Origin: a virus
Direction: 5' to 3' (one strand)
Virus record (IMG/VR): IMGVR_UViG_3300011115_000145
Span: 1-23,276 of that record
DNA: 23,276 bases
Shown here: one piece after another, positions 260 through 21,153 of the stretch
Layout: each line of letters starts with the position of its first letter
Position numbering within the stretch: the stretch's first letter is position 1
Program-made: the position numbers and the translations under genes
The notes under the pieces: generated by a model
What the model was told of the DNA's origin: nothing
Databases searched by the model: none
What the model saw: only the letters and a program-made list of their open reading frames with translations

Positions 260-2173
260 ATGAACGATATTAAAACCCCTTGGTCATCTGTTGGCTACCT
301 AACTTATAAGAGAACGTACTCTCGCCGCCTTAATGAGGCTGACATTAATAGTCCAACAGAAGAATTCACCGACACCATCAAGCGTGTTGTGGATGCCACC
401 AATGACCAGCTAGGCTGCAACTTCACAGCAGAAGAACAAGAGCGATTAACTAAACACTTCCTTGAACTTAAGGGCAGTGTTGCTGGGCGTTTCTTGTGGC
501 AGCTTGGAACCAATACAGTGGATAAGCTTGGGCTAGCTAGCCTTCAGAACTGTGCCTTCACTGTGGTGGACAAACCAGTGGAGCCGTTCACTTGGGCTAT
601 GGATTTGTTGATGCTTGGCAGTGGTGTTGGTTACAACATCCAGAAAAGGAATGTAGATAAGCTACCTCCTGTCAACGAAAACTTCAAAGCCCCTACCCGC
701 TTGAATAGCTCTGATGCCAACTTCATTGTTCCTGATAGCCGTGAAGGATGGGTAGCTTTGTTGGGTAAGACATTGAAGGCAGCATTCCTAGCCCACCGCA
801 GCGGTAACCAAACCTTCACCTACAGCACACAGCTTATCCGTAGCAAGGGCGCACCCATCAAGGGCTTTGGCGGTACTGCCAGCGGCCCTGAGGACTTGGT
901 GTGGGGCATAGGTAAGATTAGCGATATCCTCTCCCGCCGTGCTGGTCGCAAGCTCCGTCCCATTGATTGCTTGGACATTATGAATATCATTGGTGCTGTT
1001 GTGGTAGCTGGCAATGTACGCCGCTCCGCTCAGATTGCCATTGGGGATCCTGATGATGTGGAATTCTTACTGGCTAAGCGCTGGGACATGGGTAACATTC
1101 CGTCATGGAGAGCCATGTCGAATAACAGTGTTGTCTGTAATGACATTGAAGACCTGCACGATTTCTTCTGGGATGGCTACGAAGGTAAGGGTGAACCCTA
1201 TGGTTTGATTAACTTGCGTTTATCCCGTAAGATTGGTCGCTTAGGCGAGACTCAATACCCTGACCCTGATGTGCAAGGATACAACCCCTGTGCAGAACAG
1301 AGTTTAGCTGACAAAGAAACCTGCTGCCTAGCAGAAATCTTCTTGCCTAACATTACCTCTCAGGAAGAGTTGATGGATGTAGCAACATTGCTATATCGAA
1401 TTAACAAGCATAGCTTGTCCCTTCCTTGCCACCTTGAATCGACAGAAGCCATTGTGAACAAGAACATGCGTATGGGCATTGGTATCACAGGGGTATTGGA
1501 AAGCACTCCAGAGCAGCTTAGCTGGCTCAAGGATACCTACACCTACCTCAGGGATTATGACGAGCAATACAGCGCTAAGAATGGGTTTAATAAATCTATT
1601 AAGCTAACCACTATTAAGCCCAGTGGAACTCTGTCCCTACTGCCGGGTGTTACACCGGGGTGTCATCCAGCTTATGCGCGATATATGATTAGACGTATCC
1701 GTATCAGCGCTAACCATTCGCTGGTGCAGACTTGTCGTGACCACGGGTATCCTGTTGAGTATCAACAGAACTCCGATGGCTCTACTGACCACAGCACAGT
1801 GGTTGTATCATTCCCCTTCCGACATTCTCAGGTGGCTACATTGGCTAGTCAAGTGGATGCACTGGCACAGCTTGATACTGTACGTTGGTTGCAGGAAAAC
1901 TGGAGCGACAACAGTGTTAGCTGTACTGTGTACTATAAGAAGGAAGAGCTTCCTGATATTAAGAAGTATCTAAAGAAGTTTTACAAAGGCTCACACAAGA
2001 GTTTGTCTTTCTTGCTGCATAGTGGGCATGGCTTTAAGCAAGCACCGCTGGAGGAAATTACCAAAGAGCAATACGATGAGTTGGTAGCATCCACTAAACT
2101 AATCACACAGGTGGGTGAAGCCACTATTGGGTTGGATGACGATTGTGCTACTGGTGCGTGTCCAGTTAGATGA
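260..2173 (+). CDS. nrdJ: Class II (adenosylcobalamin-dependent) ribonucleoside-triphosphate reductase
   Basis: The 637-residue protein matches monomeric B12-dependent RNRs of the Lactobacillus leichmannii RTPR type, which reduce ribonucleoside triphosphates to dNTPs. Visible signatures are GRFLWQLGT (77-84), SLQNC with Cys98 as the first active-site cysteine, GSGVGYNIQ (about 120-128), AGNVRRSAQIAIGD (250-263), NPCAE with the thiyl-radical Cys344 and Glu346, and Cys355, the partner of Cys98. IKPSGTLS forms a phosphate-binding loop, and the terminal CATGAC (Cys629/Cys634) is the swinging redox pair. It is about 100 residues shorter than the 739-residue L. leichmannii enzyme but has all key residues. 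AGGA lies 6 nt upstream of the ATG. The stop overlaps the next gene by ATGA, implying translational coupling. A cobalamin-supplied host is implied. Confidence 0.93.
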   Translation: MNDIKTPWSSVGYLTYKRTYSRRLNEADINSPTEEFTDTIKRVVDATNDQLGCNFTAEEQERLTKHFLELKGSVAGRFLWQLGTNTVDKLGLASLQNCAFTVVDKPVEPFTWAMDLLMLGSGVGYNIQKRNVDKLPPVNENFKAPTRLNSSDANFIVPDSREGWVALLGKTLKAAFLAHRSGNQTFTYSTQLIRSKGAPIKGFGGTASGPEDLVWGIGKISDILSRRAGRKLRPIDCLDIMNIIGAVVVAGNVRRSAQIAIGDPDDVEFLLAKRWDMGNIPSWRAMSNNSVVCNDIEDLHDFFWDGYEGKGEPYGLINLRLSRKIGRLGETQYPDPDVQGYNPCAEQSLADKETCCLAEIFLPNITSQEELMDVATLLYRINKHSLSLPCHLESTEAIVNKNMRMGIGITGVLESTPEQLSWLKDTYTYLRDYDEQYSAKNGFNKSIKLTTIKPSGTLSLLPGVTPGCHPAYARYMIRRIRISANHSLVQTCRDHGYPVEYQQNSDGSTDHSTVVVSFPFRHSQVATLASQVDALAQLDTVRWLQENWSDNSVSCTVYYKKEELPDIKKYLKKFYKGSHKSLSFLLHSGHGFKQAPLEEITKEQYDELVASTKLITQVGEATIGLDDDCATGACPVR

Positions 2174-2646
2174 TAGAGATAGTCATATCTCCAGCCATGC
2201 TGGTCGAGGCCAGAGACAAGGCTGCTGAGATGGGACAGCTTCGCAATAGCATCATCAGAGGGGCTGGCAATATTGCTGGCTTCATTGGTGAGGCTATTGC
2301 CCAGCAAGTGCTAGGTGGGAAACTGTGTAACACCTACGACTATGACTTGGTTTTAGATGATGGGATTAAGATAGATGTTAAGACTAAGCAGACGGGCTAC
2401 GTTCCCCTGCCTTCTTACGACTGTTCTATTGCCGCTCTAAATACCAAGCAAGACTGTGACTACTATGCCTTTGTTCGTGTGAAGAATGACTTCTCAATTG
2501 GTTGGTATTTAGGTGTGTATAATAAAGACCAATACATGAAGGACGCTGTGTTCATGCAGAAGGGAACTATAGATCCATCCAATGGGTATACAGTTAAGAG
2601 TGATTGTTACAACATAAAGATTAATCAATTGAAGGATAAACCATGA
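2170..2646 (+). CDS. PD-(D/E)XK-superfamily-like nuclease (putative)
   Basis: The 158-residue protein starts inside the nrdJ stop (ATGA overlap). An alpha-helical N-terminus with Glu41 (GFIGEAIAQQ) is followed by beta strands YDYDLVLDDG (56-65) and IKIDVKTK (66-73). The arrangement E-(n)-D-(n)-D69-V-K71 is the catalytic core pattern of restriction-endonuclease-fold enzymes. The size fits small phage nucleases, resolvases or single-domain REases. Coupling to ribonucleotide reductase suggests a role in DNA metabolism, for example degrading host DNA to supply nucleotides, but this is inference. No DNA-binding domain is seen outside the core. A structure prediction that places E41, D69 and K71 together would settle the fold. 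Confidence 0.6.
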   Translation: MIEIVISPAMLVEARDKAAEMGQLRNSIIRGAGNIAGFIGEAIAQQVLGGKLCNTYDYDLVLDDGIKIDVKTKQTGYVPLPSYDCSIAALNTKQDCDYYAFVRVKNDFSIGWYLGVYNKDQYMKDAVFMQKGTIDPSNGYTVKSDCYNIKINQLKDKP

Positions 2647-3205: not shown

Positions 3206-6200
3206 TCATCTTCTTTCTACTAGCCCACCCTTGGCTAGCTTCTGAGTTAGCTCTCTGACCTTGTTAACACTTTTAACTTGACTAGCAGCATCACTAGCCC
3301 AGCCTTCCTGTAATACTTTTAACTCTTTGTTTAAAGAACGCAGTAACATAGCCTTTTCTTTAGAGCCTTGCTTTTCTAAGATATTACTTGTCGTAGTTAA
3401 CAAGTCTTTAGTAAGGATTATATTCTTGGCTGCTCCTTTTCCTGTAGTAAAGGAAGAAAGACCAGACTTTTCAATATAATCTAGATTAGATAGTTCATTG
3501 TGATACCTCTGTCCCATGCCAGCTTTGGTTGAAGTGATATCAGCTTTCTCCATATAATTATTAAAGAGATTTCTTATCTCTTTATATATTTTATTAGCAG
3601 CAACATCACCCTTCTCCGTATAGAGGTCAGAACTCAAATCAATAATTCTATCTTTTATTTTTACCTCTTCCTTTTTGCGGTTTAGAAATCCCTTCTTATC
3701 CCAATCTTTCCCAAGCAAAGATACTTTCTCAGGATTAGCGGCAGCAAGAGTAACATCGTTAGCCGCTGATCTAACTTCTAATTGATTGCCTGTTCCTTTA
3801 CCTTCAGGACGAAGCTTGTCCGTCTCTGTAATCATGTCTTCTGTTTCTTTAAAGTTAGAAGATCTTGGCAGACCAACAGGACGAATAACTCTGTCAGACC
3901 CGTTGATAGACTGAGCAATAATATTTAAGTTCTTATTGTCATATGCTGTAGGAGCCATGTTAATTCTCTTGAACATGTAGTCAGCGTATGGCATCTCTGT
4001 ATAGACAATCTTATCTGCATTAGGCCCACCAAAAGCAGGGGACTCAAAGTTTAAATTCAAATCTCTAGTGAATGATGTACCACCCACTTCCATTTCACTA
4101 TGGTATTTTTCAATCTGTTGTGGGTCTAAGAAGCCTGTCTTATATCTAGTAGTAGGCTCAGCCGCATACGCAGCTTTGCCATGATAGAGTTTCACTGGTG
4201 GAGTATCTTTGTACTCTTCTCTCAGTGCATCTAGTTTCTTCTGTGCTTTGACAGCCATATCTTGTACGATGCCAATGTCCTCAGCCTTAGACGGGTTTAT
4301 TTCTCTTCCTTCTTTAATACGGAAGTCACCCTGCACCACTGCAATAACATCTTCAACGTCTGGAAGCTCTTTAACCTGAGGAAGATTAGTTAACTTATCA
4401 AAAGAATATGTTCTAGATTCCCGCACAGCAGCAAGCACTTGCTTTCTACTGGTTGGGCCTCTTCCTACAGTATCTAAATTTCCTTGAAGAATTTTAGATT
4501 CAGGGATGGAGGGAAGAGTTTCTCTCTCTTTCTTTACAACCAGTTTAGCTTTCTCAGGATTGTTCCAAGAGTAAGGAGTATCAGGATCAAAGTCACCGAC
4601 ATCTTCTCCCTGTGCTTCATACTTCTTGTACAGATCGTATTGCTTCTTCCACTCAGGCACTTCTTCTTCTGGTAGTTTAACTGCTGGTGCTTCCGCTTTG
4701 GGAAGGGTAGGCTCAGGAGCGTCAACAAAACGTCCTTCTCTTTCTACATCACCAAAGTATGGCCCTTCGTCTTTAACAACCTTTGAAGTAGATGTAGGCC
4801 GAAAGACAGGACGCTTAGTAGATGTAATAGATTCAATAGGTTCTACCACACTCTTACCTAAAGCAGTTTCTTTTGTTGCCTTGAGGGCAGCAGCAGTCTC
4901 TTCAATTTCCGTGCCAACTTTCTTTCCTAGCATGGAGTCCATCTGCTGTAGTAGGTCAGCGCCAAGCTTGGTAATACCACGTTCTATAGTTTCTCCAGCT
5001 AGCTTCTTAGCCACGATACCACCACCAGCATATCCCACCACACCACCAGTGGCTTTGCCATCAGGCTTCAGAATATTCTGCACTGCTTCAGCATAAGCTA
5101 ATCCAGTTTCATATTCCTTAGTTTCTGTAAGGTCTTTACCTGTGTTCTGTTTGTACAAAGCAGCGGCCTGACGCTTCACTTCAGCGGGTTTGGCTGCATA
5201 CCTATTCTCTATAACACGAGCAGCCCCTAAGCCGCCTTCTATGGCCTTTGATCTAGCTATATCTACAGCAACAGTCTTAGCTTCTTTCTGCATGCCAGCA
5301 AGCGTATTCTCCAGCGCTATCTTCTGTAGATCTTTGTTAGCATTCTTATAGAAGTCAGTGGATGTTAAAGCCTCGTAAGAAGCTATCAATTGTGGAGCAA
5401 GCATTTCTTTGGCTTGCCTATCAACAACCTTATCACCTGTAGTGGTGAACAGCTTATTGAAAGGAACATCAAGACGAGTTAGCTCTTTCTCAAATGGAGT
5501 TGGATTAACCTTGATAGAGATACCAGCAAACATCTTCAATAAACCAGCATCGTTAAAAGAAGCTTCAGTCTTTGTAACTGGCTGTGCCACTGGCAGTTCC
5601 TGTTTCAACACAGGTACTTTTGACATCAGCACATTCTTTGCAGACGAGATAAATCCCTCTTCTCCCTGCTTGATTTCATAGACAGACCTAGGAAGGGTTT
5701 CATTCCTATCAACAGCCCCAATGATATCGCTCAGTTGCTGCATTGGAATAAGCGCTCTGCCAAAGTATTGACCAGCCCACTCACCAAAGAATGTACTTAC
5801 TTTCTTCTCTGCCACATCTTCACCAGTTGCCGAGGCTTGCCAATTAGATGCTGCTGTAGCAAACTGATCGCCTAGCCAATTACCTGTACCTGCTGGCATC
5901 TTAAATCCAGTTACTGCCTCAAGCAATTCTTTAGCTTTGAATTCACTTGTAGTTCCATTCTCTAGCTTAACCAAGTAATCACCTAGTGCTAGGAAGGGGG
6001 CGGCAGGGAAGAAGGCTCTAGTATCAACCAAGCTACCATCAGTATTCTTAGCATCGTACCACTCAGTGTCTTGGTTATCTTTTCTGTATTTATAAGCGGC
6101 GTAAATTGCGCCTGTGCCTACAATACCTTTGGACAGCTTCTCTAGTCCAGCCATCCTCTTGTTAAGATCTTTACTAGCGACATCAATAGAACCTGACACA

Positions 6201-8782
6201 AGACCTATTGGGCTGTGTGTAGCTGTCCACTCCATAGCGTTAGCCATGAAACGAGGAAAAGGTATTAGCGTTGACCCTACAGGGCCAAGCTCTTCAACAA
6301 ACTTAACCGCATGATAAACCGGCCCTTTAGTAGGCATCTTACTAAATGTAGCGAGTAATGCTTCATTTGTAGCATTCTTTAGAACGTCCAAAGGAATATT
6401 CTTATCTTGAGCCAAGACACTGTACATGTCTATGCCAACACGATCTAGTTGCTTCTCTACGTTAGCAGCGAAGATGGCTCTTCTAAAGAAAGCATCCTGT
6501 GCTACGTTAAAGGTATTAGCAATCTGTCCTACTCTGGACAAACCTTGATCACCAGCTTCACCAGCCGTTTTCAGGATAAGACTATTTAGTGTTGGAGAAC
6601 CCGCCAACAACTTCTCTGCCACCTCAGCAGATAAGCCAGCATCAGATAAGTAAGAAGCTGTTCTGAATGCATCATTCCATACACCCTTGATGCCATTAGT
6701 AAACGAACCAGTAACAGGCTTTCCTGTGTATATCTCTGCGGATGTTTTACCCACTCTGTACAGAGCAGACTCAACAGCTTCAGAGGCTGCTCCAAACGTA
6801 ACCACGGTTAAGCCTGAGTAGGCGTTGCGTACAGTGGTAGCTATCTGAGAAACCATCAAGGCTTTCAGTTCTTTATCCATTCGCATGCCAATGTCTTTAA
6901 CAAAACCAAACGAATCAGTAATGGCATTCCTATTACCATACATCAGGTCTACTTCTTTAGCAGCAGCAGGGTCAATGTTCTTTAGTTTATTCTGTATCCT
7001 CGACAAAACAGAATAGCTCTGCATTGTGCTGGCTGCATCACTCACTGTGGTTCTGTTCATACGAGCAAACTCTTCAGGAGTGATGTTTGCTTTTGCAAAT
7101 GCATCCTTCAAAGCAACATCGTCAATGTTATCTATGTTAAGGAACACATTCTTAACAGCATCAGATACCTTCTCTCCCTGCTTAGGGGCAAACTCAGGTA
7201 GGCTAGTCCATACTTCTTGTGCAAGCTGTGTGGCTTTTCTATTAATCTCTTTTCTAACCTGCATCTGCGCTACAGCAGATTCGTTCTTCGCAAAAGCTCT
7301 TTCGTAATCCATCCCTGACAACCCCTCAAGGTTGATCTGTTGCTTGTCCAGTAGGTTACGCCCTTCAAAGATATCGTAGTCATCTTCTAGTTGCTTCTGT
7401 GTACCTGTAGATGCTTTAACCTCCAGCTTAGGAGCGGGAGCTTGGGGAAGCCCTGCTTTTTTTCTAGCTAGGATTTCGTCTAGACTGCTTTGACCACCGC
7501 CTAGCTTCTTACCTGCTTTAAGAACAGCAGCAGCTTCAGCCGAACCCATAACACCGCTAACAGCACCTGAGATAACTGCTTGCTTGATGTTGATGCCTTC
7601 TTCTACTTTCTTTCTAAGTAAATCTAAAGTTGGCTTAAGCTTATCCTGTTCTTCAGGACTAAGAGAAGGGAATCTATCTTCAGCATTTTTAAGCTGAGCA
7701 GCAGCAATTGTTAACTCTATCTTTTGCTGCCCTGTATCGGACGCTACGCCCTGTGCTGTTTCTATAGCAGGTATAGCAGCTACTTTGCCTATGTTACTAA
7801 CTAAAGCTTTCTTGAGTCCCTGCTCAGCTACAGCTTTTTGAATGGGGGTAGCAAGCATCTTCCCTGCCCCCAACGACACAAAGGTAAGTGGGTCTGAGAA
7901 CATAGACAGTAATGAATCTGTTACTGGTCTAATTCCTTTCTGTCCTTTGCCTCCTGCTGTCATCATAGATGGGTCTGCTATATTATCCCATAAGGTATAA
8001 GCAGCATCCATTTTTAACTTATCTTCTTGTTTAGCACTATTTAAAAATTGTATTTCAGAACCTAATGAAAATGGATTGCTTCTCTTCAGAAAACGCATTT
8101 GCTGAGCAAAGCGGTTAACATAGTCTTCTGTAGATTCGTTAGGTTTCTGCAATTCGCTCTTACCAAAACGAGCTAGTACATACTCATCAATTGTTTTCTT
8201 CAGCGCAGGGGATTGTATCAAGGCATCGAAAGGAATCTTGTTCTCTTCTGCTAGTCTTGTTTGTTCTACCTTCTCCTTCATAGCCTCTGCTCTGGGCTTG
8301 AATTCTCCAGCAAGTTTAGATTTAAAACTAAACGCTGCTGATACTTTAGACTCATCAGTTGTAGGAGCAGGAGCCTTTGCTGTCATTACCTCTGCTTTAG
8401 GTTCAGTAGCCTTGATATCATAGAGAGAAGGTGTACGAACTTGCTTGTCTCTTGCTGGAAGTGTAGGCTCTACAGCTACAGGCTCAGTAGTGGCTACACC
8501 AGCCTTCTTAGATGTAGCAGCTATCTCACGATCTAATGATTGAACATCAGCAGCAGCCCTATCTTCTCTAGCTTTGTCTTTTAAACGCTGGGCTTCGGAA
8601 AGAGCAATAGAGGCTTTCTCTTTCTCTGCTTGGAGAATAGAGAGCCTCTCTTTATCTTTTGCTTGCTGGTCTGGCCTAGTAACCAGAGAAGTAGATTTCT
8701 TTGGAACCAGATCATCAAAAGAAACTTCTTTTGGTTTCTGGTTACTAGGAATTAAATCATCAAAAGAAAGGTCATAAGCCAT
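3206..8782 (-). CDS. Giant ejection-type internal virion protein (1858 residues)
   Basis: This is the last and largest gene of the virion operon, probably a protein packaged in the head and injected, as T7 gp16-type proteins are. Residues 1-30 carry a duplicated SFDDLIP/SFDDLVP motif. A charged helical segment with coiled-coil character follows (about 40-95). The middle (about 450-1240) is a long helical region with weakly hydrophobic stretches, such as one at about 643-670 and PFPRFMANAMEW near 840. A Gly-rich element YAGGGIV lies at 1251-1257 and appears to divide the protein. The C-terminal 600 residues include LYHG (1532-1535), SFTRD (1570-1574) and YTEMPYADYM near Glu1596, which together resemble an ADP-ribosyltransferase-like fold. 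The last nine residues are AKGGLVERR. No lytic transglycosylase motif was recognised. The start ATG lies 3 nt after the 510-residue gene. The virion role is inferred from size and position. Confidence 0.7.
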   Translation of the reverse strand: MAYDLSFDDLIPSNQKPKEVSFDDLVPKKSTSLVTRPDQQAKDKERLSILQAEKEKASIALSEAQRLKDKAREDRAAADVQSLDREIAATSKKAGVATTEPVAVEPTLPARDKQVRTPSLYDIKATEPKAEVMTAKAPAPTTDESKVSAAFSFKSKLAGEFKPRAEAMKEKVEQTRLAEENKIPFDALIQSPALKKTIDEYVLARFGKSELQKPNESTEDYVNRFAQQMRFLKRSNPFSLGSEIQFLNSAKQEDKLKMDAAYTLWDNIADPSMMTAGGKGQKGIRPVTDSLLSMFSDPLTFVSLGAGKMLATPIQKAVAEQGLKKALVSNIGKVAAIPAIETAQGVASDTGQQKIELTIAAAQLKNAEDRFPSLSPEEQDKLKPTLDLLRKKVEEGINIKQAVISGAVSGVMGSAEAAAVLKAGKKLGGGQSSLDEILARKKAGLPQAPAPKLEVKASTGTQKQLEDDYDIFEGRNLLDKQQINLEGLSGMDYERAFAKNESAVAQMQVRKEINRKATQLAQEVWTSLPEFAPKQGEKVSDAVKNVFLNIDNIDDVALKDAFAKANITPEEFARMNRTTVSDAASTMQSYSVLSRIQNKLKNIDPAAAKEVDLMYGNRNAITDSFGFVKDIGMRMDKELKALMVSQIATTVRNAYSGLTVVTFGAASEAVESALYRVGKTSAEIYTGKPVTGSFTNGIKGVWNDAFRTASYLSDAGLSAEVAEKLLAGSPTLNSLILKTAGEAGDQGLSRVGQIANTFNVAQDAFFRRAIFAANVEKQLDRVGIDMYSVLAQDKNIPLDVLKNATNEALLATFSKMPTKGPVYHAVKFVEELGPVGSTLIPFPRFMANAMEWTATHSPIGLVSGSIDVASKDLNKRMAGLEKLSKGIVGTGAIYAAYKYRKDNQDTEWYDAKNTDGSLVDTRAFFPAAPFLALGDYLVKLENGTTSEFKAKELLEAVTGFKMPAGTGNWLGDQFATAASNWQASATGEDVAEKKVSTFFGEWAGQYFGRALIPMQQLSDIIGAVDRNETLPRSVYEIKQGEEGFISSAKNVLMSKVPVLKQELPVAQPVTKTEASFNDAGLLKMFAGISIKVNPTPFEKELTRLDVPFNKLFTTTGDKVVDRQAKEMLAPQLIASYEALTSTDFYKNANKDLQKIALENTLAGMQKEAKTVAVDIARSKAIEGGLGAARVIENRYAAKPAEVKRQAAALYKQNTGKDLTETKEYETGLAYAEAVQNILKPDGKATGGVVGYAGGGIVAKKLAGETIERGITKLGADLLQQMDSMLGKKVGTEIEETAAALKATKETALGKSVVEPIESITSTKRPVFRPTSTSKVVKDEGPYFGDVEREGRFVDAPEPTLPKAEAPAVKLPEEEVPEWKKQYDLYKKYEAQGEDVGDFDPDTPYSWNNPEKAKLVVKKERETLPSIPESKILQGNLDTVGRGPTSRKQVLAAVRESRTYSFDKLTNLPQVKELPDVEDVIAVVQGDFRIKEGREINPSKAEDIGIVQDMAVKAQKKLDALREEYKDTPPVKLYHGKAAYAAEPTTRYKTGFLDPQQIEKYHSEMEVGGTSFTRDLNLNFESPAFGGPNADKIVYTEMPYADYMFKRINMAPTAYDNKNLNIIAQSINGSDRVIRPVGLPRSSNFKETEDMITETDKLRPEGKGTGNQLEVRSAANDVTLAAANPEKVSLLGKDWDKKGFLNRKKEEVKIKDRIIDLSSDLYTEKGDVAANKIYKEIRNLFNNYMEKADITSTKAGMGQRYHNELSNLDYIEKSGLSSFTTGKGAAKNIILTKDLLTTTSNILEKQGSKEKAMLLRSLNKELKVLQEGWASDAASQVKSVNKVRELTQKLAKGGLVERR

Positions 8783-11038: not shown

Positions 11039-13435
11039 TTAAAGATCTTTGATGATTTCATAAGCTAATTTTCCCCAAGAAAGACTAGCATCAGCGTCTG
11101 CTTTAATTTCAACTGCTGTCTTACTAGCATTAGCTGTGATTGTGGTAACAGCCAACTGAGTAAGTCTATCCTTATCATTCTCCCCTGCTTTATATGAGAG
11201 TTCCAATAAGTCCCTGTATGTTTGAGACTGTTGGGAATATGTAGATGCAGATAGATCTGTAGCATTCTTTGCATTCACTGCATTAATTGCGTTAGCTTCT
11301 CTTGTGTTAGCAGTAGAAACATCAGCCAATATTTTAGCATTAGCTAGATCAATCTGTGAACCTAGTTGAGAATTAAACTCTTCTCTTCTGTTTTGCTCAT
11401 TAGCATTAAATTTAGCTATTTCATTAGTAGCAGCGTTGTTAGCTATCAACACTCTATTCTGTTCAGACGCATTATACTGTGAGGCTTGAAGAGCAAGACT
11501 AGAACTGATCTTGTCAGCTTCTAAAGCATTAGAAGCGTTAACGGCCTTAGCAGCATTCTCTGCTGCTGTATCACTAAGAATAGATTGCGTGATAGCCTGT
11601 GTTTTTATCACAGCCATTTGTTGCTTGTTGTCCAAGTTCTTCATATCCATTTCTAAAAAAGCTTTAGAAGTTAATACGTTTGCTTGTTGACGATTATTAA
11701 GATTAGTTAAATCAAGAGTCGCAGCAGTAGCAGCATTAGCAATGGTAGTAGCCTGTGCAGAACTAAGCTCAGCCAATCCAATACTTTTCATTATTTCAGA
11801 ATTATGCAATGCTGTATTCTGAGCAGCAGTAAATGTAAGATTAGCATTCTCTGCAATACGGGAAGAATTAAGCACGGCAGCTTGTTGTTTATTATCTAAT
11901 ATCTTACCTTGCATAGCTGCTTCAATTTGTGCGTTAGCCAAGGCAGTTTGTTGTCTGTTAGAAGTATTAGCCATATCCACTTGTACTTGCATTGTGCTGT
12001 TATGCAGGGCAGTTTGCTGTACATTATTCAAATTGATATTGGCTTGTTCAACATAACGGGCAGCATTAAGCACAGCAGCTTGCTGAGAATTACTTAAGTT
12101 TTGACCTTGCAGTGCTGCCCTAATTTGGGTATTAGCCAGCATTGTTTGCTGCGTATTACTTATGTTCTGACTTTGCAAAGCAAATGAGTGAGTTGCGTTA
12201 GTAAGTCTTGCCTGTTGTTCGTTAGACAAATTCTGTAGAGATAAACCCTGTTGAGCAGCGGCATTAGCTAAAGCAACCTGTTGTCGGTTGTTTAAGTTCT
12301 GCATGTTCATTGTTTCAAACACCTTAGCGTCTTGAGCAGCAATAGGTAAGGCGCTTTCCATAGCTGCTTGGAACACGGCTGTGCTAGCCATAGAACTATT
12401 ACCAAGACCCCTAGAGGCCATTGCAGAGTTAGCGGCTCTAATAGCACCAGCAGCCCATGCAGGGGTAGAGCCATCGTTAAAACTCTTCATCAATGAAGAT
12501 AGTTGGCCCTGTACTGTGGACAACGCATTAACATCACCCTGTGCTGCTCGTGCTAATGTTCCATCATCTACAGTGAATGCTGCCAACTTAGCAGCAACAA
12601 CTTTAGCATCAGGAGCCAGCCCTTCAGCAACAAGAGCCGTTGATTGTGCCATATCAGATTCTTTAATCTGAGCAGCTTGCACAAGTTGATTTTCCTGTAC
12701 AACCCCTTGGGCTGCTTCCGCTTTTTGAGGCGCTGCTGTTTGTGCGGCTTGTGATTCTACTTTAGGAACAGTGGTTGCAGCTTCAACAAGTTCTCCAGCA
12801 CCTGTGGTTCGTGTTTGAGCGGTTACAGGAGCTTTATATTCTTCACCTACTTTTTGTATTGCAGCAGTAGCTTCGCTAGATAGAGCACCAATAGCAGCAG
12901 TTGTTAAAGCCGAAGTACTGAGTGTTCCTTGGGCTGCACTAGCCTTATCCAGTTCTGTCTGTAAAGCAGTCTGTGATGTATCAGCAGTTATGCTTTTAGC
13001 TGTTATAGCAGTGGGTAGAGTGGCTTGCTTAACATCCGTTGTAGGTATGATAGTTGCTGTTGCATCTGTTGTATCAGCAGCTTTTGTGTACGTTACATTC
13101 GCTGGTGTAGAAGTTTGAGCAGCAGTTGCTGTTGTTGCTACTGGTTTAACAGGGATAGCATCAGAGCCAGTTGTATCAGAGCCAGCACCACCAGCAACTG
13201 TGTCAGAACCAGCACCACCAACAGCACCACCAACATCACCACCACCAGCATAGTAGCGTCTCTTTACCATACCGCCTTCAGCCATCTTAGTGACATACTT
13301 AGAAGTGATGGCTGAAAATCTATTAGACTCTGAAGGGGTTGATGCCAGATATTCATCAAACATTTGCATAGGGCCATCGTAACCCATCTTACGGGCCACA
13401 ATCTCGCGCTGCTGTTCTGTAAAAGTTTCTCTCAT
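11039..13435 (-). CDS. Repeat-rich ejection-type virion protein with 22-residue repeats (798 residues)
   Basis: Residues 1-50 form a charged globular start. The motif AEGGMVKRR (52-60) and YYAGGGDV (61-68) follow, then a Gly/Ala/Asp/Thr-rich linker (about 69-95) and a low-complexity Ala/Thr region to about 250. Residues 379-620 are eleven exactly phased 22-residue repeats with consensus N[LIT][SND]NxQQxAxLxN. The end (620-798) is Ala/Asn-rich and probably helical. The 22-residue period equals two hendecads, which favours a long helical or coiled-coil rod. AEGGMVKRR nearly repeats the C-terminus of the 1858-residue protein, linking the two functionally. AGGA lies about 12 nt before ATG 13435. 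The function is inferred: internal core, ejection conduit or tail-associated rod. Confidence 0.65.
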   Translation of the reverse strand: MRETFTEQQREIVARKMGYDGPMQMFDEYLASTPSESNRFSAITSKYVTKMAEGGMVKRRYYAGGGDVGGAVGGAGSDTVAGGAGSDTTGSDAIPVKPVATTATAAQTSTPANVTYTKAADTTDATATIIPTTDVKQATLPTAITAKSITADTSQTALQTELDKASAAQGTLSTSALTTAAIGALSSEATAAIQKVGEEYKAPVTAQTRTTGAGELVEAATTVPKVESQAAQTAAPQKAEAAQGVVQENQLVQAAQIKESDMAQSTALVAEGLAPDAKVVAAKLAAFTVDDGTLARAAQGDVNALSTVQGQLSSLMKSFNDGSTPAWAAGAIRAANSAMASRGLGNSSMASTAVFQAAMESALPIAAQDAKVFETMNMQNLNNRQQVALANAAAQQGLSLQNLSNEQQARLTNATHSFALQSQNISNTQQTMLANTQIRAALQGQNLSNSQQAAVLNAARYVEQANINLNNVQQTALHNSTMQVQVDMANTSNRQQTALANAQIEAAMQGKILDNKQQAAVLNSSRIAENANLTFTAAQNTALHNSEIMKSIGLAELSSAQATTIANAATAATLDLTNLNNRQQANVLTSKAFLEMDMKNLDNKQQMAVIKTQAITQSILSDTAAENAAKAVNASNALEADKISSSLALQASQYNASEQNRVLIANNAATNEIAKFNANEQNRREEFNSQLGSQIDLANAKILADVSTANTREANAINAVNAKNATDLSASTYSQQSQTYRDLLELSYKAGENDKDRLTQLAVTTITANASKTAVEIKADADASLSWGKLAYEIIKDL
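11576..12301 (-). repeat. Eleven tandem 66-bp (22-residue) coding repeats, with 198-bp higher-order period
   Basis: Inside the 798-residue gene, eleven consecutive 22-residue units run without insertion or deletion (11 x 66 = 726 bp). Units 3-5 and 6-8 form two copies of a three-unit block: the first unit ends in AA[LM]QG, the second carries QQAAVLN and ends AN, and the third carries TALHNS. A matching DNA stretch around 11865-11882 recurs at 12063-12080, exactly 198 bp away. Units 9-11 look like a more diverged third block. Confidence 0.9.
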
Positions 13436-19155: not shown

Positions 19156-21153
19156 TTAACGTCTATCATGTAATGAATACTCTAGCGTAGCAGCATCCAA
19201 AGAGAAGGGAGAATTTGTACCTGTAGAAGTAAACTGTAAAGATACAAAGAATCCCGAGCCAATTAACTGTGTTTCAAATAATTTCTTAAGCTTAGCTCCA
19301 TATGTAGTTGTACCATATTTTGCTGTGCTTGTACCATAAAAGCTAACATCAGATGTTGCGTTACTTAATACTACTGTAACAGGCTGTACACTACCTATAT
19401 TGTCAAAATCAAATTTCAAATTAGCGTTTATTGATAAGCTTCCTTGAGGATCTGTATAAAGCAAAAGCTTATATATTGTCTTCCTCATTCTGGAATCATC
19501 CATAAATATATAAGGAGTAGCAAAAGAAGCTGAGATATTAGAACCATCAAAACTATTACCACTCTCCATCTGATATACATACCCATCTGTATTTGCAAAT
19601 ATAATAGTTTCTACACTATTAGCAAAATAAGAATCAGCAACATAAGCCTTTATTCCAGATAGTTCTGCCCAAGCTATATTACTAGAAGTATCACTAGCCA
19701 TTTGAGTACCTAAAATACCCACAGCACTAGAAGCCGTAACGTTTTCGTTAAATCCTAGTAGCCTGTATTGAGACTTCTGTTTTATAACAACACTGGCAAA
19801 GCTAGTACAAGAAGAAATTAGATCGGTCATTTCTTTTTGAATTGTTTTTGAGACTAATCCTAAATTAAAATCACCCACCCTATCTGTAAGACCAAGTAGC
19901 CGTAAGCCATCTGGCCCCAAGAAAATTACATCCCCGCTAACTTCTTGTATTGTGTCGGAAGATATGCATCCTACATTTCTAGTTATTGGTTGAAGATTAA
20001 AATCTGATAGTGTATTACCAACCAACTGGTTTATTGTTCTTTCTGAAAAGATTATTAAGATATCTCTGAATACAATTAATCCAGTAATCTTAGCACCAAT
20101 AGAAATAATACCAGAGCCGTTAGCAGCGGTAAAATCCGTATCGCTATAAGGAGCAGTAAATATTAAGTTACTGCCAACAGCAAAGAATAATTGATTCTTA
20201 TGGAATACAACAAACTCTGCCCCTTCTAAATCTGAAGTGGTATTCAATTCAGTGAAAGTTGTTCCATCATAAATGAATGGAAAATTGTATCCATCTACGC
20301 CAGCAATTTTTTCTGTGTTTGCCATTCTATACTTAGCGTTACGCATCTTTAATGCGCCACTTCTATCTAAAGATAGCCAAGTAACTGAAGCGTTGTCAGC
20401 GGGGCTAGAAGCTAAGGCAGGACTAATAGATAGTGTTGTACCTCCACTAGTAACTGTGGCATTAGCCGTTACAGTATATACTTTCTCTACACCCGCAATA
20501 CTGAAGGTATCTCCAATTCTAGGAGAACCAGTTAGACCATCTATAATTAAAGAAGACCCTGTTTGAGATGCCCCATTAATTAGCACTGTACCATAGGAAG
20601 GCACACTAATCTTTGCCCAAGTAGTTCCAGTAGAAGAATATACACTTCCGTTCCTACTAGCAATAGCCCTATCATTCCAGTAAGCCACGCCTAACACTGT
20701 GCCAGAGTGGGACGTAAAAGTTACAGATGCTTTATCAGCGGGACTACTAGCTAAAGAAGTAGTTAGAGTTAGTGTAGCTCTTTTATTATTACTATCAAAA
20801 GAAACTCCACTAGTTGCAATAGTATATGTTCCTGTTACTCCAGAGATAGTAAATGTAGACCCCTCTAATGGGGCGCTATAAATATTAGCAATTACTAATG
20901 TTGTTCCTGTCTGTCCACTTCCGTGTACTTTTGGCTCACCATAAGCAGGAATAAAACTAGAGGAATACTTTGAATATCCTTCTATCCTAGAATACCCACC
21001 ACTAGTGGAAGGCTCAAAGTTCTTTAGTATACGGGCGCTTCCGGGAGCTTTAACCCCGTGCTGTAGTGGGGAAAGACTAGATATAAGTCCCCCACTAAAT
21101 TCAAACCCGTAGGTCTTCCAAGCGTCTGCCATATTATTTAACCCTATCGCCAA
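19156..21153 (-). CDS. Tail nozzle / tail tubular protein B-like (665 residues)
   Basis: The start region APGSARILKNFEPSTSGGYS and RIEGYSKY is the N-terminal signature of podoviral tail hub/nozzle proteins (T7 gp12-type or P22 gp10-type). A propeller-like beta region follows, with repeated F-x-x-G-N and 'I-x-F-S-E-R-T-I-N-Q-L' type elements around residues 360-430. The C-terminus (SPFSLDAATLEYSLHDRR) is also typical of the family. Two similar beta domains of about 75-80 residues (about 71-149 and 187-262) are inserted near the N-terminus, each with QTG[ST][TS]L and LASSPAD[KN]ASVT. It starts 20 nt inside the adaptor gene. The protein closes the distal tail and contacts fibres encoded next. 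Confidence 0.8.
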   Translation of the reverse strand: MAIGLNNMADAWKTYGFEFSGGLISSLSPLQHGVKAPGSARILKNFEPSTSGGYSRIEGYSKYSSSFIPAYGEPKVHGSGQTGTTLVIANIYSAPLEGSTFTISGVTGTYTIATSGVSFDSNNKRATLTLTTSLASSPADKASVTFTSHSGTVLGVAYWNDRAIASRNGSVYSSTGTTWAKISVPSYGTVLINGASQTGSSLIIDGLTGSPRIGDTFSIAGVEKVYTVTANATVTSGGTTLSISPALASSPADNASVTWLSLDRSGALKMRNAKYRMANTEKIAGVDGYNFPFIYDGTTFTELNTTSDLEGAEFVVFHKNQLFFAVGSNLIFTAPYSDTDFTAANGSGIISIGAKITGLIVFRDILIIFSERTINQLVGNTLSDFNLQPITRNVGCISSDTIQEVSGDVIFLGPDGLRLLGLTDRVGDFNLGLVSKTIQKEMTDLISSCTSFASVVIKQKSQYRLLGFNENVTASSAVGILGTQMASDTSSNIAWAELSGIKAYVADSYFANSVETIIFANTDGYVYQMESGNSFDGSNISASFATPYIFMDDSRMRKTIYKLLLYTDPQGSLSINANLKFDFDNIGSVQPVTVVLSNATSDVSFYGTSTAKYGTTTYGAKLKKLFETQLIGSGFFVSLQFTSTGTNSPFSLDAATLEYSLHDRR

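What the first reader, a model, noticed from the sequence alone, without database searches (positions are those of the whole stretch)
3863..4225. Possible ADP-ribosyltransferase-like domain near the C-terminus of a giant ejected protein
Residues about 1520-1640 of the 1858-residue protein show LYHG (His1534), then SFTRD (Ser1570), then YTEMPYADY (Glu1596). This order and spacing resemble the three catalytic elements (H/R, S-T-S, E) of ART-fold domains. Polyvalent and MuF-type phage proteins are known to carry ART domains as host-modifying effectors. If the protein is injected with the DNA, this would be an enzyme delivered before any phage gene is expressed. The catalytic residues are not a perfect match to a known subfamily.
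Basis: partly seen in the sequence, partly recalled or inferred. Interest (0 to 1): 0.72.

Follow-up and report, generated by a model that had tools for sequence, protein, structure and literature searches.

The report
Phage-borne ADP-ribosyltransferase with matching eraser
A phage protein that is probably carried in the virus particle ends in an enzyme-like domain predicted to tag host proteins with ADP-ribose, and every near-complete related phage genome tested that has this domain also carries a gene for an enzyme that removes such tags, while those without it do not, which points to a matched write-and-erase pair.

Summary
Residues ~1530-1656 of the 1858-aa protein form a predicted ADP-ribosyltransferase (ART) fold (AlphaFold pLDDT 89.9; the listed PDB matches with Z 5 or more are all ARTs). 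H1534 (strand 1) and S1570 (strand 2) are invariant in 93 distinct sequences, but E1596 is not (64/93; K in 15). The invariant acid motif is E1646-x-E1648 (strand 5), just outside the given range. No Pfam, NCBIfam or PHROG family covers it. The module is usually fused to an HMO-2011 gp22-like protein, sometimes a separate gene just downstream, and is missing from HMO-2011 and its cultured relatives. New here: every TerL-defined relative of at least 50 kb with the module (19/19) also encodes a DraG/Tri1-like ADP-ribosyl-arginine hydrolase; none without it does (0/19). Two ~95% identical phages differ by both genes together. Best reading: a virion-delivered ART that modifies host protein, probably at arginine, paired with a phage-encoded eraser. 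Activity, virion location, ejection and target are not shown. The window is a fragment that ends before the place where its own eraser gene would lie.

The parts
3206..8782 (-). 1858-aa protein: HMO-2011 gp22-like N-terminal part fused to a C-terminal ART-bearing module
5072..8782 (-). residues 1-1237: gp22-like part (HMO-2011 gp22 is 1128 aa and lacks the module)
4454..5071 (-). residues 1238-1443: variable linker that starts at the fusion joint (GG-rich 'ATGGVVGYAGGGIV')
3779..4447 (-). residues 1446-1668: conserved module, two helices then the ART-like core (modelled 1475-1668)
4181..4183 (-). H1534, strand 1, invariant 93/93 (NAD-binding His position)
4067..4075 (-). S1570-F1571-T1572, strand 2, invariant 93/93
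3995..3997 (-).
3839..3847 (-). E1646-T-E1648, ExE motif at the start of strand 5, both Glu invariant 93/93; the likely catalytic acid pair
3239..3778 (-). residues 1669-1848: variable C-terminal segment
3209..3238 (-). residues 1849-1858 LAKGGLVERR: recurrent C-terminal tag, kept in the ART-less gp22 of G024

Best explanation
The C-terminal module is an ADP-ribosyltransferase of the ART fold, a separate clade with H1534 (strand 1), S1570-F-T (strand 2) and E1646-x-E1648 (strand 5). It rides on, or is encoded next to, a gp22-like late protein that is probably packaged in the head and delivered with the DNA; it then transfers ADP-ribose from NAD+ to a host protein, most likely on arginine. The same phages encode a DraG/Tri1-like ADP-ribosyl-arginine hydrolase, on the strand of and next to the replication genes, that removes the mark, either to end an early pulse of modification or to protect the producing cell when the protein is made late. 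Shown here by computation: predicted fold, invariant residues, fusion/split architecture, strict co-occurrence with the hydrolase and joint absence in one of a near-identical pair. Inferred: activity, arginine target, virion delivery, timing and host target.
For: AF2 model from 74 sequences: pLDDT 89.9, pTM 0.85. VIA-align: the rows shown with Z>=5 are all ARTs (diphtheria toxin 6.2, ExoA 5.7, cholix 5.2, tankyrase 5.2, ParT 5.0); Foldseek top hits tankyrase 1/2 (E 0.03-0.06) and ParT. H, S and ExE invariant in 93 sequences on strands 1, 2 and 5, the positions given for R-S-E/H-Y-E ARTs in PMC7827354. Hydrolase PF03747: 19/19 records >=50 kb with the module, 0/19 without. Reverse test: each hydrolase-bearing contig examined that also holds gp22 has the module; the six without it hold no gp22 match. 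G005 (both) and G024 (neither) are ~95% identical over most of their length, the hydrolase gene being cleanly absent between joined flanks. TerL tree: the module changed state at least 5 times; 4 well-supported independent pairs, all concordant. Hydrolase nearest 6dre/6drh (2e-40), DraG 1e-30, NCBIfam Tri1 1e-51, ARH3 only 1e-8. Module also a stand-alone ORF in 9 loci.
Against: Fold matches are modest (best Foldseek E 0.03; Z about 6, below the tool's caution line of 8), and a profile search of PDB sequences finds no ART. hhalign with the RPP1 ART is not significant. The H plus S plus ExE combination is neither class's textbook set. The independent-pair sign test cannot reach 0.05 (p 0.125 with 4 pairs). 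G005 and G024 differ in a few other genes too. No evidence for virion location or activity. The window's own hydrolase gene would lie off its left end.
Confidence: 0.75

Rival explanations
1. ART fold, but the product is a small molecule or a nucleic-acid adduct (NADase, DNA or RNA modifier) rather than protein ADP-ribosylation; the hydrolase acts on that product.
For: ART folds include NADases and nucleic-acid modifiers; the RES toxin is among the weak Foldseek hits.
Against: The linked hydrolase is nearest Tri1/DraG, protein ADP-ribosyl-arginine hydrolases, and PMC9503650 argues such domains prefer macromolecular conjugates.
Confidence: 0.13
2. The hydrolase is not the module's partner but counters host ADP-ribosylation defences; both genes are separate accessories of the same lineages.
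For: Phage de-ADP-ribosylating enzymes are discussed as acting on host-made marks; module and hydrolase lie far apart in the genome; few independent changes.
Against: 19/19 versus 0/19, concordance in all four independent pairs and joint absence in the near-identical pair G005/G024.
Confidence: 0.2
3. A non-enzymatic structural domain of a virion protein whose resemblance to ARTs is only an arrangement of strands.
For: Fold scores are modest and no sequence profile detects an ART.
Against: Invariant H, S and ExE on the right strands; ART-only top matches; module missing from relatives that keep gp22; linkage to a hydrolase.
Confidence: 0.1
4. The first reader's exact site, H1534-S1570-E1596.
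For: Residues are present in the window.
Against: E1596 is K, D, T or S in many homologues and lies on strand 3.
Confidence: 0.02

Closest known systems
T4 Alt (virion ART injected with DNA; Alt/VIP2 clade, R-S-E)
   Same: Proposed logic: head protein ART acting at the start of infection (described in PMC5512222 and PMC10468400); Ser on strand 2 and Glu on strand 5
   Different: Strand-1 His instead of Arg; no sequence kinship found; here paired with a hydrolase
ART domains of polyvalent proteins / N4-ART (Tox-ART-HYD2; PF18760)
   Same: ART on a giant phage protein, strand-1 His, LYHG motif shared with RPP1
   Different: Strand 2 Ser not Tyr, strand 5 ExE not Asp; no PF18760 match; hhalign not significant
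Tre1/Tri1 effector-immunity pair and DraT/DraG
   Same: ART paired with a DraG/Tri1-type hydrolase; the biology of these pairs is from general knowledge
   Different: Here the ART is on a phage late protein and the hydrolase is elsewhere in the genome; not a secretion-system effector
ART-ARG toxin-antitoxin pair of some Aeromonas phages (PMC9503650)
   Same: Phage-encoded ART plus ADP-ribosylglycohydrolase
   Different: Those are described as toxin-antitoxin pairs; here the ART is fused to, or beside, a gp22-like protein
DraG-like ARH reported in five HMO-2011-type metagenomic genomes (PMC9038755)
   Same: Probably the same hydrolase in the same phage group
   Different: That paper calls its role unclear and, in the passages read, does not link it to an ART

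Membership tests
ART superfamily fold | ART core fold | tested here: met
   Model pLDDT 89.9; rows with Z>=5 shown are ARTs, though Z is only about 6
ART superfamily fold | R/H on strand 1, S/Y on strand 2, E on strand 5 | tested here: met
   H1534 strand 1, S1570 strand 2, E1648 at start of strand 5, all 93/93
ART superfamily fold | NAD+-dependent transferase or glycohydrolase activity | not testable with these tools
   needs purified protein
R-S-E class (Alt/VIP2-like) | Arg on strand 1 | tested here: not met
   His in 93/93
R-S-E class (Alt/VIP2-like) | ARTT loop X-X-aromatic-X-X-E/Q-X-E | tested here: inconclusive
   ExE present; aromatic/hydrophobic residue (F/Y/W/M/L) two, not three, before the first Glu
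H-Y-E class | Tyr on strand 2 | tested here: not met
   Ser in 93/93
ART-PolyVal / Tox-ART-HYD2 (PF18760) | Match to the family model or its N4-like prototype | tested here: not met
   No Pfam ART match in any of 33 members; hhalign with RPP1 ART prob 1.8%
ART-PolyVal / Tox-ART-HYD2 (PF18760) | H (strand 1), Y (strand 2), D (strand 5) | tested here: not met
   H, S, E in 93/93; definition from PMC5512222
PF03747 ADP-ribosylglycohydrolase (partner gene) | Model match and metal-site motifs GDA, TDD, DADT | tested here: met
   E 1.3e-52; motifs conserved
Virion-ejected effector | Protein present in virions and delivered to host | not testable with these tools
   Only gene position and gp22 homology

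The most novel reading that the evidence does not exclude
A large group of aquatic phages uses a timed write-and-erase system: a virion-delivered ART of a new clade marks host protein at entry, and an early phage hydrolase removes the mark, so ADP-ribosylation acts as a transient switch during takeover.
Probability: 0.45. Interest if true: 0.82.

Novelty: new variant of a known kind. Interest (0 to 1): 0.7.

Why it matters
It gives a probable partner and role to a phage ADP-ribosyl hydrolase whose function was recorded as unclear in PMC9038755, adds an ART clade not covered by the Pfam, NCBIfam and PHROG models searched, and makes a testable case that some phages encode both the writer and the eraser of a host modification.

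Tried and rejected
E1596 as catalytic acid: rejected by conservation. Sequence-profile links to known ARTs: none in PDB sequences, Pfam, NCBIfam, PADLOC or PHROGs beyond weak hits to unnamed families. hhalign to RPP1 ART-PolyVal: not significant. Bacterial genome scan: no relative confirmed. tblastn of the domain in isolate phages: none. First AF2 model (33 sequences, with two extra helices) was weaker and gave ART hits at poorer scores. HMO-2011 DNA polymerase as group marker was too diverged; TerL was used. Fragments G033 and G035 carry the hydrolase without the module, but no gp22 match lies on them, so they say nothing. gp22 and its neighbours have no informative Pfam or PHROG hit that would name an ejection protein. 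No paper found with virion proteomics for this group.

Full report
What was checked. The ORF at 3206-8782 (minus) encodes 1858 residues. The record is a 23,276-base virus fragment. Its gene order matches the region of Puniceispirillum phage HMO-2011 that runs from a class II ribonucleotide reductase, on the opposite strand, to gp22, gp23 and gp25. HMO-2011 gp22 (1128 aa) matches only the N-terminal part of the giant protein, so the last ~600 residues are an addition.

Anatomy of the addition. A scan of viral contigs with the whole protein and then with the domain profile gave loci with 92 distinct relatives. In 88 distinct ORFs the module is fused to the gp22-like part; in 9 loci it is a separate ORF of about 610-690 codons starting at the end of the gp22-like ORF; 13 are cut by a contig end. 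In the split forms the second gene follows a purine-rich stretch or an ATG just after the first gene's stop, so the module can stand alone. HMO-2011, ctYwJ313 and contig G024 have gp22 without it.

Conservation. Across 93 sequences, with mean pairwise identity 46%, H1534, G1535, S1570, F1571, T1572, D1574, P1598-Y-A, R1634, E1646, E1648 and K1656 never vary; E1596 does. The invariant acids are therefore E1646-x-E1648, at window 3839-3847, outside the stated range. An aromatic or other hydrophobic residue sits two positions before the first Glu, close to but not identical with the ARTT loop of R-S-E ARTs as given in PMC7827354.

Fold. A model of residues 1475-1668 from 74 phage sequences has mean pLDDT 89.9 and pTM 0.85, with strands at model positions 56-61, 95-98, 118-123, 162-164 and 174-177. 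H1534 is on the first, S1570 on the second and E1648 opens the fifth, which is where PMC7827354 places the R/H, S/Y and E of ARTs. Foldseek's best PDB matches are tankyrases and ParT (E 0.03-0.2). VIA-align lists ARTs throughout the 50 rows shown, with model residues 55-193 against diphtheria toxin 16-170 at Z 6.2; by range ends alone this puts H1534 near that toxin's active-site His and E1648 near tankyrase's catalytic Glu, an approximate reading because only range ends are given and the active-site numbers are from general knowledge. These scores are modest and the tool warns about Z under 8; the uniformity of the hits, rather than any one score, carries the claim. Sequence profiles see no ART.

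The partner gene. PF03747 (ADP-ribosylglycohydrolase) was found in 23 of 28 records that carry the module; the five without it are contigs of 29-46 kb. Restricting to records of at least 50 kb, with relatives defined by TerL, 19 of 19 with the module have the hydrolase and 0 of 19 without it do, the latter including HMO-2011, ctYwJ313 and ten Roseobacter CRP phages. Three of the 19 positives (G013, G015, G018) were included by the module alone, without a TerL check. Fisher's p is 2.8e-11 but the records are related. On a TerL tree the module changed state at least five times; four well-supported independent pairs all go the same way, too few for a sign test to reach 0.05. The sharpest case is G005 and G024, ~95% identical over most of their length: G005's 277-aa hydrolase is missing from G024 with its two flanks 14 bases apart, and the ART part of gp22 is replaced by a short stretch. 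A few other genes also differ between them. In the reverse direction, 10 of 16 hydrolase-bearing contigs have the module and the six others have no gp22 match.

What the hydrolase is. Its best solved relatives are 6dre/6drh and DraG, with ARH3 far behind; NCBIfam's best models are Tri1 and DraG, both below their strict equivalog cut-offs. Metal-site motifs are intact. In G001 and G005 it lies on the strand of the replication genes, near integrase and primase-like ORFs. That it is expressed early is inference from this position. The window ends about 10 kb short of where the gene lies in G001, so its own copy could not be seen.

Interpretation. The protein works like an ART effector with a cognate eraser. 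It cannot be filed in the R-S-E class (no Arg), the H-Y-E class (no Tyr) or ART-PolyVal (no match, other residues); it is best called a separate ART-fold clade. Protein arginine as target is suggested by the ExE motif and the type of hydrolase, not shown. PMC9503650 describes virion ARTs and rare phage ADP-ribosylglycohydrolases, including an ART-ARG pair in Aeromonas phages; PMC9038755 reports a DraG-like gene in five HMO-2011-type genomes with unclear role. I found no paper in the searched library that links the two in this group; the library omits most subscription papers.

Limits. No activity, virion or infection data. The ejection idea rests on gp22's place in the late structural region and on a terminal tag shared with other proteins of that region. 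The number of independent gain or loss events is small. The relatives come from IMG/VR contigs whose completeness is not stated; the 50-kb cut is a stand-in for near-completeness, based on 53-56 kb isolate genomes.

Noticed in passing
window 3209-3238 (minus); G024, G032 and G017 proteins in loci L396-L407; P0003 (window 11039-13435, minus) near residue 55: A KGG[LFM][AV]SRR-like motif recurs at the C-terminus of gp22 with or without the ART module, at the C-terminus of another late protein in G032, and near residue 55 of the gp25-like protein; it may be a virion-assembly signal.
   Followed up: partly
G005 and G024 (L396-L401): In G024 the ART part of gp22 is replaced by a short stretch, and ORFs next to gp22 (88 aa, HNH-like by eye, and 236 aa) are not found in G005.
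   Followed up: partly
window 2170-2646 (plus): A 158-aa ORF after the ribonucleotide reductase has a weak PADLOC match to a type II methyl-directed restriction enzyme (E 0.0002).
   Followed up: no
L206:1802-4036 (G001 41802-44036): A 744-aa late protein after the portal gene has weak Hint-domain matches, possibly an intein or Hint module.
   Followed up: no
G035 (L408-L409), contig 19737-20504: A divergent hydrolase (about 35% identical) occurs in the HMO-2011 clade on a 30-kb fragment without a gp22 match; whether that phage has an ART is unknown.
   Followed up: partly
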